From Xestospongia bergquistia (lineage: Eukaryota > Porifera > Demospongiae > Haplosclerida > Petrosiidae): a stretch of 64,000 bases of DNA. The position numbers and the translations under genes were made by a program. The stretch lies in contig OZ014420.1 of NCBI GenBank assembly GCA_963965975.1, forward strand, positions 2,501 to 66,500, written 5' to 3'. A model generated the notes under the pieces. That model had not been told where the DNA came from and did not search any database. It saw only the letters and a list, made by a program, of their open reading frames with translations. Positions 54,422-59,351 of this stretch are shown here, piece after piece (position 1 is the stretch's first letter; the number at the start of each line of letters is the position of its first letter).

Positions 54422-57400
54422 CTACAAAGCAATTCCAGAAGTTTTCATTCGAGAGTCAATGAGAGTGTCTGCAATATCAGAACGACCGACATTTTCAAGA
54501 CTTGACACTAAATCTAAAAAAGAGGATGACTCCAAACGTGTAGAAAATAGCTCCATAACTCGTTGATCTGTGTCTTCATCACAAGATGCAACTTTAATTT
54601 CTTCTATTTCTTCAGGTGTAACACCAATAGCACTACCTAACGTACTCCATGAGTCTTGTAAGGCCTCCGTAATTAATTGAATGTCATCAATATTGACAAA
54701 TTCATCTAAAATATAACATAATGACATTATCAATATCTCATCGCATACCTTCACCAGTGTCCTCTTGAACAGATATTACAGGTTGCGGAATATCCTCACC
54801 AAACCATGGAGTGGATAACAGTGGTAAGGTGACCTTTGACCCTAGTTCACACTCCAATGGTTCAACTGGTGTATTTATACCTTCTAATATTATATAATGA
54901 AGGGATTGTGGATTACAATAACACTGAATTCGGAGGTCAAAGGTCACATTGGGTAGCCATTGATGAAAGATATCAGTTATTGCTGGTTGTATAAACATAA
55001 GAACTGCCATTGCTGTTTCTGGCGCTGGTAGACAAGATGATGTAGATGACTCTGATAAAGAAGAGGAAGTTGTAGGATGATGTGAGGGATGGAGGGATAT
55101 TTTAAGTTTATCATCCTGTTTATCAATCAATAACATTGTCATTGGATCCACCAAAAAACAGGCAGCAGATTTATATAGAAAATTACTGGAAGTATAGAAA
55201 CGTAGACAGCGAACTAAAAGTCGATTAAATACGACTGTGGGAAATGTTCCTTGATGATAAACAAAATATAGTGGATCAATTAAAGGAAGAGAAATAGACT
55301 CAGGTAAGGACTCTTGAACTAATGATGGCACAATTACTGAGGTAATAGTAGGGGTAGTTGGAGGAGGAGGAGAAGGTGAATGATAGGGTGACATGAGAAT
55401 ACTTTTTTCTGATTCCCATGGTGATAAGAGGCGGGACTGTGGTCCACACAATGCTATCAATTCCAGAGAATGTAGTATAAGTAATAACTCTTGTCTATTT
55501 GATTTAGAACCAGACCACAGATGTTCTAGGAGTCGGTCAGTTACGACACCATGTGACAAAACTATCTGATGATCTGAAGTGAGATTTGGAGGGATATTAT
55601 GGTGATCTGCTAAACCATAGAGTAAACCAATTTTTTTAAGAAACCAATGAGGATTTGTGATAACAGTGTGGAGTAAAGGCTTGAATGATGAAAGATGTAG
55701 TATTACTAAATGATTGTGAAGAAATTTGAGAATTTTATTGACTTCTTCATCACTTGAAGATAAACAAACTTCCTTAACAATACTTTTAGCATCTGCTAAT
55801 GGTATAAAGACCTGCTCAGATAGATTCTGGAAACGCCTGATACAACGTAACCATCGTAGAGGAACATTAAAATGGCATTTCTTCTTAATAAGGTCAATGA
55901 GATATTTTTTAAGATCTTCAATTGTTGATTGATCAAACAATGAAGAACAGCTGACAATAAAACTACTAGATGCAAGGCAGTTACTATAGCAACTGTTTTT
56001 GAGTGCTTGCCTGACTTCATCTAATCTTTGCTTTGCAGTCACAGCTGATGCATGCTTATCAGAATGAGTACCTACTAATACAAGTGAAGTAGGAAAAACA
56101 GCTATTTGATCAAAGATAGAGTTAAGATTGTTGAGTAATTCTTTAACTATATCTCGATCATTGAATGAAATATCAACAATAGCTAGCATAATAGATGATT
56201 CTGTTAGTAGAAGACTTTTAAAAAATGAGCTGCAGTCGTGACTGGGAACATCAATTAGTTTTCCATAGATTTCTGGAGGGAGTGTACCATTGACACAATC
56301 TTTAAGCTTCTCTTTTAATTTAACAAGGAGGGTGTCGGGAATAGCTGATACAAAGGATGGTTCACTTGGAGAAAGAGGTGGAGATGGAGGTGGAGGCATA
56401 ACAATATCAGTATGAAATAATGGAGGACTATGGTGATTACTTTGATGATGAGTTCGAGACGTTAATGAACCGCGTCGCATTAAATTTGAAAGTCTTTTCT
56501 TAATAGATTTTCTTGTTTTCTGTGATGTTCCAGTAGCTGCACTATGTAAATCTTCTGGAATACTGCCACTACTTCGTAATGGTGGGTGTGACTGACTCTC
56601 AACAAGCATTGACCTACGTTGAGGACGTGAACGTGGTGGTAAAGGGGGAGGGACTCTTAAAACGACATTAGAGAGTCTCATACGATCTGGAGGTAGAGGA
56701 GGTGGTATGGAGTCACTTTGTTTAAATAATTCATCAATAATGGTACGACATAACTCATTATCATAGGCTAATCCGTGGGTAGATGGTAACCACCCCCTAT
56801 GACTAACAAGTTGACAATACTTCTCTGGTACATCAAATGTACCAGTGGGTGGTTCTCGATGACGAAATTCATTGCCATTAAAACATCGAATGAGGCTAGT
56901 TTTTCCAGCACCTTTAGGACCTACAACAATCAGATTAGCAAGATAGAGAGAAACAGAATGCTTTGATGGAGCCTCTTGATAGATTTTTGAAGTCAAAGGT
57001 AGTTGCAAAAGTTCCTCAGCTAATGAAAATTAATGAGAGTTAGAGTGGGTGTGGTTATATATTACCTCTCTCATTAACTTTAATCATGGCTCGTCGATCA
57101 GGCAATGGGCTGCTACAAGGAGTGCGTGATTCACCTGCACAGATACAGAGATAATATCATATCATAAAATATCTTTATTTTTACCAAAAGATTTGGATAA
57201 CATTGCTTGAAGATTTTCAAATGTAGGTCTATTATTTGAATCAAACTGCCAACAAAGTGTCATAATATCATCTATACCATTAGGACAACCATCAGGTGGA
57301 TCCATTACATATCCATCTTCAAGTTGCTTCAATACATTCTCTGCTAACTAATGAAGCAGTAACAAGAGGGGTTACCTCATTATAATTACTTACTATTGAA

Positions 57401-59351
57401 GGATAGGGTATTCGACCATATGAATAAATTTCCCACAGGCAAATACCAAAACTCCAAACATCAGATTTCTCAGAGAATATCTAAATTAACTATTAATATA
57501 TTAATCAAAGGAGAATGACTCACATTTTCTTTCAGAGCTTCTGGAGCTGTCCATTTTACAGGAAACTTGCCTTTTTCATGTGCAACATAACTATCTGCTC
57601 TAATAGCTAGTCCAAAATCTGATATCTAGACAATTAGAAAATGAAATGTGTATTTCAATAAATAAAGTACTAAAATAGAATGAATGGTTTAATACACACA
57701 TATTTAAACTAACTTTAGCTTGACCATTGCCATTCAATAGCACATTCCTTGCAGCCAGGTCCCTGTAGTGATAATTGTGGTCAGATATGCTCAGTTAATT
57801 ATATTCACAAACCTATGTACAAATCCTTGACTGCTAATATACATCATACCCTCACAAATATCTCTAAACAATACATTCCATTAATAAGATGGTATATAAA
57901 CATTATGTACCTTGAATAACTTAATAGTTCTGTTTGTGCAACAACCGTACGACCTCGTGTTGCCAAATATTTACCCAGAGATCCCTAATTATGTGAGCTT
58001 AATTAAAAAACAGGAGGTGTGGTCAACTTACTTTAGCCATAAACTCCAGTACTATTTTATTTAATGATAAATCTTTGAAGACCACACCCACAAGTTGTAC
58101 TAAATTTTTGTGCCGTAGATGTCTGTTTAAAATGCATACATACTTATAGATATATATCACGTAACATCTTACGTCATTATAGCAGCCTCCTGGAGAAATC
58201 CTTGAACAGCTAAACCATCTTCTTTATCTTCAGGAATACTTTTAATAGCTACTTGTAAACCACGATATGTTGCAGCATGAACCTCTATAAATAACATCTT
58301 GACCTTACTCATTTAATTACCATAGTATTACCTCCAAATTCTCCATGGCCAACAGACTTAACTAAATTGATGTCATCATTACATAGTCCCCAATCTATTG
58401 GAAGCAGCCCTACTAATTAAATTAATTACGAAAATAAAGCTTACAATTTTGAAGGGACTTTTTATTGACATAATACTTCAATGATTCTTGTGATGGCAGT
58501 GGTTGACTTAACGGTAGAGTAGTTAACTGTTCTTGATAGTACTAAAAATTAAATTTTTATACTCAAGTAGTAATATACCCACATACCTTAATGAGAGCTG
58601 GTAATGTGTCATAGTATTGTTTACCATCAATGGTTAATTGATGTGTAACAATATTCATAGCAATTAAATAGTGTTTGACCACACCTCCAGAACTAGTAAT
58701 AAACACAAATAACAACAATACTGTATTATATATTATTTACCAAACAGCTAATGCATAAACACTATCAGTTGATGATTGACTAGGACGAACTAAAAATTGT
58801 CCTTCACAAGAGACATCCAATAATTCCTCAGCTTCTTCACGAGTAACACAATGAAACCATCTTTAAATAATAATATTATATAAAGATATAGAATAAAGAA
58901 TTCCACTTACGACATTGGAAGTAATTCAATAGCAGGACGTACTACTAAAGCAGAGAGGGGTACTTCTCCAATTAATCCTTCTACATTTCTTACAACACAA
59001 CTCTAAAAGGAAAAATATCAAATAGAACAAATAGATACCATACAATAGGACATTGTAAAGAACATTGTGTGAATCTCAAGATATGCACTAGAAATAACAA
59101 CTCACAGTTTCATTATGACTAATGACAGTAAGTATATCATCCTTTTCATAACACAGCTCCTAATGTAAGTAAACATGTTTTGTTATGATAAGATCTGTAA
59201 TTCATATTGTTACCTCTGCATTACTGGCTCCATTAGAAGATGCCAACTGACTAATAGCAGCTATACATACTGTACCAGGTAATAGATTTATCTGTATACC
59301 CATAAAATATAATATTATGATAAATATAATTGTGTAATGACTTACCTCCAT
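54422..59351 (-). CDS. SH3-SH2-tyrosine kinase fused to Roc-COR and death domain
   Basis: Nineteen exons in phase on the minus strand: 59351..59346, 59291..59214, 59159..59106, 59002..58911, 58860..58741, 58692..58587, 58541..58445, 58412..58332, 58284..58173, 58122..58032, 57984..57911, 57863..57813, 57762..57714, 57625..57524, 57480..57394, 57347..57185, 57134..57066, 57019..54749, 54705..54422; 1328 residues. SH3 (4-68) is degenerate: the ligand-site Trp of DPNWYKAR is replaced in ETSCVVRN. SH2 is at 77-160 (FLVRPS keeps the phosphate-binding Arg). The kinase is at about 198-452 (GHGEFGEV, VAIK, HRDLAARN, DFGLA). Unlike Csk it has a Tyr at the Src Tyr416 position ([14 protein letters not shown]). 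Roc: P-loop GPKGAGKTS (511-519) and THSD (about 792). The Roc is split by a Pro/basic insert with [13 protein letters not shown] follows (about 870-1130) and a death-domain-like segment ends the protein (1236-1320). No stop or start lies between the two halves. The linker exons are the point to confirm by RNA. Confidence 0.82.

What the first reader, a model, noticed from the sequence alone, without database searches (positions are those of the whole stretch)
54422..59351. Csk-like tyrosine kinase fused to a Roc-COR GTPase and a death domain
Nineteen exons read in one phase through SH3, SH2, tyrosine kinase, Roc, COR and a death-domain-like end. Established architectures put Roc-COR with Ser/Thr or TKL kinases (LRRK) or with a Ser/Thr kinase, ankyrins and a death domain (DAPK1). 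A Csk-type SH3-SH2-kinase front on a DAPK-like tail is one I do not know. It would couple phosphotyrosine reading and writing to a GTP switch and a death-domain adaptor in one chain. The exon lengths 120, 51, 49 and 87 match the adjacent Csk copies, which supports origin by duplication of a neighbour and capture of a downstream Roc-COR-DD gene.
Basis: partly seen in the sequence, partly recalled or inferred. Interest (0 to 1): 0.9.

Follow-up and report, generated by a model that had tools for sequence, protein, structure and literature searches.

The report
Csk-type kinase fused to Roco-death tail
An animal gene appears to join the tyrosine kinase that normally restrains Src to a Roc-COR and death-domain tail, a combination not found in the papers searched here, and it sits in a genome rich in Roc-COR genes.

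Summary
On the minus strand at 59351..54422, nineteen GT-AG exons read in one frame to 1327 residues (1328 counts the stop): a Csk-type SH2-kinase front, a Roc-COR middle and a C-terminal death domain. The SH3 is only a remnant, and the Roc has lost its G3 motif, so 'GTP switch' is doubtful.

Fusion is inferred, not shown: there is no RNA. The kinase-to-Roc splice path beats nearly all shuffles (1 of 300; 11 of 2000 with exon 17 fixed; 1 of 500), and the frame survives skipping exon 17.

The genome holds at least 150 COR-A places. Two have an SH2 match within 10 kb upstream on the same strand (about 0.5 expected): this gene and an SHP-type SH2-SH2-phosphatase, also joinable in phase 1 to a Roc-COR exon, though that join is not significant alone (40 of 300 shuffles).

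The 'copy of the neighbour' origin is weak: the kinase is as far from its neighbours (52-53%) as from vertebrate Csk (54%), and the tail has only distant relatives in this genome. Closest known: DAPK1 (kinase before Roc-COR, then death domain), but that kinase is Ser/Thr and no ankyrin match was found here. New variant of a known kind.

The parts
54422..59351 (-). whole gene model: 19 exons, 3984-nt CDS with stop, 1327 residues
58911..59291 (-). exons 2-4: SH3-position segment, degenerate (no Pfam hit; aligned to Csk from residue 10)
58587..58860 (-). exons 5-6: SH2 domain with FLVR (residues 99-102)
57201..58367 (-). Csk-type tyrosine kinase domain, residues 199-448 (introns included); VAIK, HRDLAARN, DFG, APE present
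57066..57134 (-). exon 17: 69-nt linker, phase 1 in and out, skippable without loss of frame
54749..57019 (-). exon 18: 2271-nt Roc-COR exon, phase 1 in and out
56898..56921 (-). Roc G1 (P-loop) GPKGAGKT, residues 510-517
56259..56897 (-). 213-residue stretch between G1 and the G3 place, proline-rich in parts (PPLPPR)
56238..56258 (-). G3 place, LIDVPSH where paralogues have IWDCGGQ, residues 731-737; placed by eye, MAFFT left it in a gapped region
56058..56069 (-). Roc G4 THSD, residues 794-797
55446..55862 (-). COR-A
54921..55271 (-). COR-B, weak match (E 0.032, under cut-off)
54458..54685 (-). death domain, exon 19
51534..53633 (-). neighbour Csk copy B (extent of the spliced alignment); stops soon after the kinase, no tail in the same exon
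44062..45631 (+). neighbour Csk copy C (SH2-kinase); stops soon after the kinase, no tail in the same exon

Best explanation
One gene encodes a Csk-type tyrosine kinase carrying a Roc-COR and death-domain tail. Shown by sequence: the open frame, the homologies, kept kinase and SH2 motifs, no recognisable SH3, no G3 in the Roc, and splice sites better than chance. Inferred: the Roc-COR exon is a phase-1 module that joined an old, diverged Csk paralogue. The tail then acts mainly as a dimerising and placing device, because COR dimerises and death domains assemble, rather than as a GTP timer. The kinase is thereby put at death-fold assemblies instead of being recruited by SH3 and SH2 alone, and damps Src-type signalling there by phosphorylating Src-family tails.
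For: 19 in-frame exons. Splice path reached by 1 of 300, 11 of 2000 and 1 of 500 shuffles. Introns 16 and 17 are 50 and 46 nt, like most of the 24 training introns. No in-frame ATG between the start of exon 18 and the P-loop, and skipping exon 17 keeps the frame. Csk kinship with VAIK, HRD, DFG, FLVR and TRGRTV present. Roco kinship. Death domain. In 25 of 27 non-LRRK Roc-COR frames with a P-loop, a phase-1 CAG or TAG lies 21-27 codons before it (many are close relatives, and several have such sites in other phases too); here the acceptor lies 32 codons before, also phase 1. An SHP-type phosphatase also stands before a Roc-COR exon in joinable phase 1; of 150 COR-A places only these two have a listed SH2 match within 10 kb upstream on the same strand, about 0.5 expected. 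COR dimerisation and DAPK1 regulation: passages of PMC6320773 and PMC6337361.
Against: No transcript. The donor of intron 16 is weak (4.5 bits; training median 7.9, lowest 3.1) and an AATAAA lies in it. Reading through ends the kinase seven codons on, as Csk copies B and C end soon after the kinase. Tandem genes here can be about 190 bp apart (B to the next gene, ATG chosen by eye). In one search the best path skips exon 17, so the exact splice form is open. Roc and COR-A in the full chain are under Pfam cut-offs. Both structure models are poor (death exon pLDDT 56; exon 18 pLDDT 36), and the death model matched nothing at E <= 0.001. The SHP-type join is not significant alone (40 of 300). Nothing here tests partners, dimerisation or substrates. 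The activation loop has a tyrosine (residue 349) where Csk has a gap in the alignment.
Confidence: 0.6

Rival explanations
1. Two adjacent genes. The Csk kinase ends in intron 16 ([11 protein letters not shown], stop) and a separate Roc-COR-death gene starts at the exon 17 ATG (57087).
For: Read-through gives a Csk-like end; AATAAA at 57179; gene B stops about 190 bp before the next gene; exon 17 holds an in-frame ATG.
Against: The in-frame intron 16 is reached by only 11 of 2000 shuffles even with exon 17 kept from its ATG. The gap between the kinase stop and that ATG would be 74 bp, tighter than the two gaps looked at (about 190 bp; 193 bp). AATAAA is expected about 2 per kb per strand.
Confidence: 0.17
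2. One gene with two products: a short, Csk-like kinase by ending in intron 16, and the long fusion, with exon 17 as a cassette.
For: AATAAA next to the read-through stop; frame kept with exon 17 skipped; the best-scoring path skips exon 17.
Against: No RNA; the hexamer is common here.
Confidence: 0.2
3. It works like DAPK1: GTP on Roc switches the kinase off and on.
For: Same order kinase, Roc-COR, death domain; the DAPK1 mechanism is described in passages of PMC6337361. G1 and G4 are present.
Against: No DxxG between G1 and G4; 213 residues between G1 and the G3 place; the kinase is of tyrosine type.
Confidence: 0.12
4. A decaying gene or a chance reading: the tail is not used.
For: Degenerate SH3 and missing Roc G3.
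Against: 757 open codons in exon 18 and 19 consistent exons; kinase, SH2 and death domain kept.
Confidence: 0.05

Closest known systems
DAPK1 (third group of Roco proteins; passages of PMC6337361 and PMC6320773)
   Same: kinase before Roc-COR, no LRR, C-terminal death domain
   Different: kinase here is a Csk-type tyrosine kinase with SH2, not CaM-regulated Ser/Thr; no ankyrin family listed for the chain at E <= 1
Csk
   Same: SH3 position, SH2, kinase in one chain; best solved match 1k9a
   Different: SH3 remnant only; activation-loop tyrosine; 851-residue Roc-COR-death tail
LRRK1/LRRK2 Roco kinases
   Same: Roc-COR joined to a kinase; profile match 1.2e-16 to LRRK2
   Different: kinase lies after COR, LRR in front (passages)
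IMLRK proteins of Dictyostelium and Entamoeba (passages of PMC2927912)
   Same: Roc-COR in one chain with a phosphatase-like and a kinase domain
   Different: inactive myotubularin, LRR, kinase after Roc-COR; [quoted passage not shown] no SH2 in the passages seen
Trichoplax Roco proteins (first part of one section of PMC4104024)
   Same: animal Roc-COR beside CARD and death domains; at least 17 genes
   Different: no tyrosine kinase or SH2 named there
brown-algal ROCO repertoire (one section and passages of PMC11378527)
   Same: large, exon-shuffled Roco family; up to 47 genes in one species
   Different: LRR-ROC-COR only, phase-2 LRR exons; here at least 150 COR-A places and mostly phase-1 entry to the Roc-COR exon

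Membership tests
Roco (Roc-COR) proteins | Roc directly followed by COR | tested here: met
   COR-A just over cut-off in the genome scan but under it; family profile finds LRRK2 1.2e-16; Roc alone under cut-off
Roco (Roc-COR) proteins | G motifs G1, G3, G4 of a working G domain | tested here: inconclusive
   G1 and G4 present; no DxxG between them; whether it binds GTP is untested
DAPK1 family | N-terminal CaM-dependent Ser/Thr kinase | tested here: not met
   tyrosine kinase of Csk type
DAPK1 family | ankyrin repeats between kinase and Roc (recalled) | tested here: not met
   no Ank family at E <= 1 in the chain
DAPK1 family | C-terminal death domain after Roc-COR | tested here: met
Csk family | kinase domain nearest Csk | tested here: met
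   tree of 12 sequences, Csk the only named one
Csk family | recognisable SH3 domain | tested here: not met
   no Pfam hit for residues 1-76; neighbour B 1.8e-12; the segment does align to Csk
Csk family | phosphorylates Src-family C-terminal tyrosine | not testable with these tools
   needs protein
death-domain proteins | death-domain sequence profile | tested here: met
   29.8 bits against 22.6
death-domain proteins | six-helix death fold | tested here: inconclusive
   single-sequence model poor, five helices, pLDDT 56; no fold match at E <= 0.001

The most novel reading that the evidence does not exclude
In this animal the Roc-COR exon is a phase-1 plug-in that was joined separately to two inhibitory phosphotyrosine enzymes, a Csk-type kinase and an SHP-type phosphatase, placing both brakes of tyrosine signalling at death-fold assemblies inside a Roco repertoire of 150 or more places.
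Probability: 0.3. Interest if true: 0.85.

Novelty: new variant of a known kind. Interest (0 to 1): 0.62.

Why it matters
Passages of the reviews seen here describe DAPK1 as the only Roco group with the kinase before Roc-COR. A Csk-type tyrosine kinase in that place would suggest that Roc-COR-death tails are a more general adaptor, and would link tyrosine-phosphate braking to death-domain signalling in one chain. One long RNA read can test it.

Tried and rejected
Recent duplication of a neighbour plus capture of a downstream gene: rejected as recent. A is no nearer to B or C than to Csk, and the tail's nearest other places in the genome are distant (best eight 23-29% identical). An old event of that kind is not excluded.

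A common origin with the SHP-type fusion: not supported. Against the 37 Roc-COR frames then in hand the tail was nearest to L032 and L013/L014; the SHP-type frame L040 is not among the 22 phmmer rows or the 30 BLAST rows printed.

The L040 splice path alone: not significant (40 of 300 shuffles reach it). The best-scoring path there uses one small exon; the reading with two is mine.

SH3 binding its own PPLPPR stretch: rejected, as the SH3 is a remnant. Structure models: death exon pLDDT 56, exon 18 pLDDT 36, both too poor to use; the fold search of the first was uninformative, the second was not searched. NCBIfam: nothing useful. Upstream exons of ordinary Roc-COR genes: of four stretches (L041-L044) one, L043, shows ankyrin-like text, read by eye.
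Full report
The gene. Splicing the minus strand at 59351..54422 gives 19 exons, each GT-AG, in one frame: 3984 nt with stop, 1327 residues. Exon 18 alone is 2271 nt and enters and leaves in phase 1; exon 17 (69 nt) is also phase 1 in and out, and leaving it out keeps the frame. I call this gene A, and the neighbouring Csk copies B and C.

Domains. Against Pfam the chain matches tyrosine kinase 4.6e-83, SH2 9.4e-13, COR-A 2.5e-7, Death 6.1e-5, Roc 0.0028, COR-B 0.032; COR-A, Roc and COR-B are under their cut-offs there. 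In the six-frame genome scan the COR-A stretch reaches 35.6 bits, over its cut-off of 35.3. The death exon alone gives 6.7e-7, 29.8 bits against 22.6. A single-sequence search of the tail against solved structures found nothing convincing (2 matches, best E 0.61), but a profile of exon 18 with eight paralogues finds LRRK2 (1.2e-16), LRRK1 (4.9e-8) and the Roco protein 3dpu (3.7e-9). Exon 18 is 17-19% identical to those eight. The nearest solved death domain to exon 19 is that of TNFRSF16 at E 0.046, not significant.

The front. Csk (1k9a; rat, by recollection) is the best solved match of residues 1-476: 5.4e-98, residues 10 to 449. The next non-Csk chain is at 4.6e-76 (EGFR entry), ABL1 at 2.9e-74, Src at 6.5e-68. 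In a tree of 12 kinases A, B, C and Csk group at 0.965; the order within the group is unresolved (0.499). VAIK, HRDLAARN, DFG, APEAL and the SH2 FLVR are present. That the RGR stretch docks Src in Csk is my recollection; A has TRGRTV. Residues 1-76 match no Pfam family at E <= 1, while neighbour B's SH3 scores 1.8e-12; the tryptophan and tyrosines of B's SH3 are replaced in A (alignment).

The Roc. G1 GPKGAGKT and G4 THSD are present. Between them there is no DxxG, and there is no GGQ anywhere in the chain. I place the former G3 at LIDVPSH (residues 731-737) by eye, against IWDCGGQ; the MAFFT alignment left that stretch in a gapped region. Of 39 loci examined, two had short frames and six I label LRRK-type; of the other 31 frames, 30 hold DxGGQ and the last, L014, begins after it. 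Of the six LRRK-type frames 2 hold it, so its loss is not unknown among Roco kinases. I therefore doubt, but do not exclude, GTP switching.

Is it one gene? Splice-site matrices were trained on 24 introns of A and B, leaving out introns 16 and 17. With the stretch between kinase and Roc shuffled, an in-frame path as good as the real one appears in 1 of 300 (some path of any quality in 206). With exon 17 held fixed from its ATG, it appears in 11 of 2000 (some path in 1111; one with sites at least as good as the weakest training site in 70). With longer introns allowed it appears in 1 of 500 (some path in 221), and there the best real path skips exon 17. Introns 16 and 17 are 50 and 46 nt, like most training introns. 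There is no in-frame ATG between the start of exon 18 and the P-loop. Against: the intron 16 donor is weak; reading through it ends the kinase after seven codons; and an AATAAA lies there, though that hexamer is expected about twice per kb per strand. Gene B stops about 190 bp before the next gene (next ATG chosen by eye), so tight spacing occurs. No RNA was available; the join is inferred.

The genome. The largest count in the paper seen is 47 ROCO genes in one brown alga (PMC11378527). Of the 150 places, 2 have an SH2 match (93 matches) within 10 kb upstream on the same strand: this gene and C3:919506; about 0.5 would be expected if matches lay at random, so this is suggestive only. The kinase list printed (cut short) does not show this gene, whose kinase is split by introns; so the count rests on SH2.

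The second case. At C3:914500-922500 (L040) an SH2-SH2-phosphatase frame (Y_phosphatase 9.6e-75, SH2 1.3e-41) reaches a GTAAGT donor in phase 1. Two small exons of 66 and 81 nt and the Roc-COR exon (COR-A 34.5 bits alone, 35.5 in the genome scan; cut-off 35.3) follow in matching phase. Against: the phosphatase frame read on meets a stop two codons after the donor, so it may end there; and the splice path is matched by 40 of 300 shuffles. An array of SHP-type frames at C3:1265-1283 kb has no listed COR-A place beside it. A small domain after the L040 Roc-COR exon matched no Pfam family; the Death match in L040 (31.0 bits) belongs to a frame about 1.3 kb further on, which I take for the next gene. 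So a death domain in the SHP-type chain is not shown.

Phase. In 25 of 27 non-LRRK Roc-COR frames with a P-loop, a phase-1 CAG or TAG lies 21-27 codons before it; L049 and L052 do not fit; frames without a found P-loop (5), short frames (2) and LRRK-type frames with a P-loop (5) were left out of the 39. In A the acceptor is 32 codons before the P-loop, also phase 1. These are candidate sites, many in close relatives, and several loci have such sites in other phases.

Origin. A is 52.9% identical to B, 51.8% to C and 53.8% to Csk over the kinase; B and C are 95.7% identical. B and C share exon lengths with A (120, 51, 49, 87), but A splits their 162-nt exon in two. Of the tail's 46 matches in the genome two are the gene itself; the best eight others are 23-29% identical over parts of it. 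So the join is old, or the tail has changed fast.

How it may work. Passages of PMC6320773 and PMC6337361 describe COR dimerisation and DAPK1, the group in which the kinase precedes Roc-COR and a death domain follows. I think the tail here serves dimerisation and placement rather than GTP timing, and brings a Csk-type kinase to death-fold assemblies. That step is inference.

Print. Ten library searches listed rows as follows: 20 of 436; 3 of 3; 20 of 52; 15 of 242; 4 of 4; 15 of 51; 10 of 294; 10 of 11; 101, none found; 10 of 83. In the listed titles and abstract beginnings I saw no tyrosine kinase, SH2 or Csk joined to Roc-COR. Seven papers were opened: passages of PMC8195603, PMC2927912, PMC8662651, PMC6320773 and PMC6337361; passages and one section of PMC11378527; passages and the first part of one section of PMC4104024. 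PMC11378527 mentions up to forty animal domain combinations in a figure I could not see, and no protein database of animals was on hand, so earlier sight of this combination is not excluded.

Noticed in passing
own genome: At least 150 COR-A places in one animal genome, against 47 as the largest gene count in the paper seen; most on C10, C11, C6, C1, C12 and C3.
   Followed up: partly
L040 (C3:914500-922500), 1677-6030: SHP-type SH2-SH2-phosphatase followed in joinable phase by a Roc-COR exon; join not significant alone.
   Followed up: partly
window 44771-45599 and 51545-52373: Csk copies C and B form an inverted repeat 99% alike over 829 nt, introns included, while a stretch at their SH2 exons (131 nt) is only 72% alike: looks like gene conversion of the kinase half.
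   Followed up: partly
window 42500-46800: Csk copy C shows no convincing SH3 exons in the spliced alignment.
   Followed up: no
C3:1265457-1283528: Tandem array of SH2-SH2-phosphatase frames.
   Followed up: no
window 59545: A gene that reads like a RING protein (by eye) starts 193 bp head to head from this gene's ATG.
   Followed up: no
window 57179: AATAAA beside the read-through stop in intron 16: a possible short kinase form.
   Followed up: no
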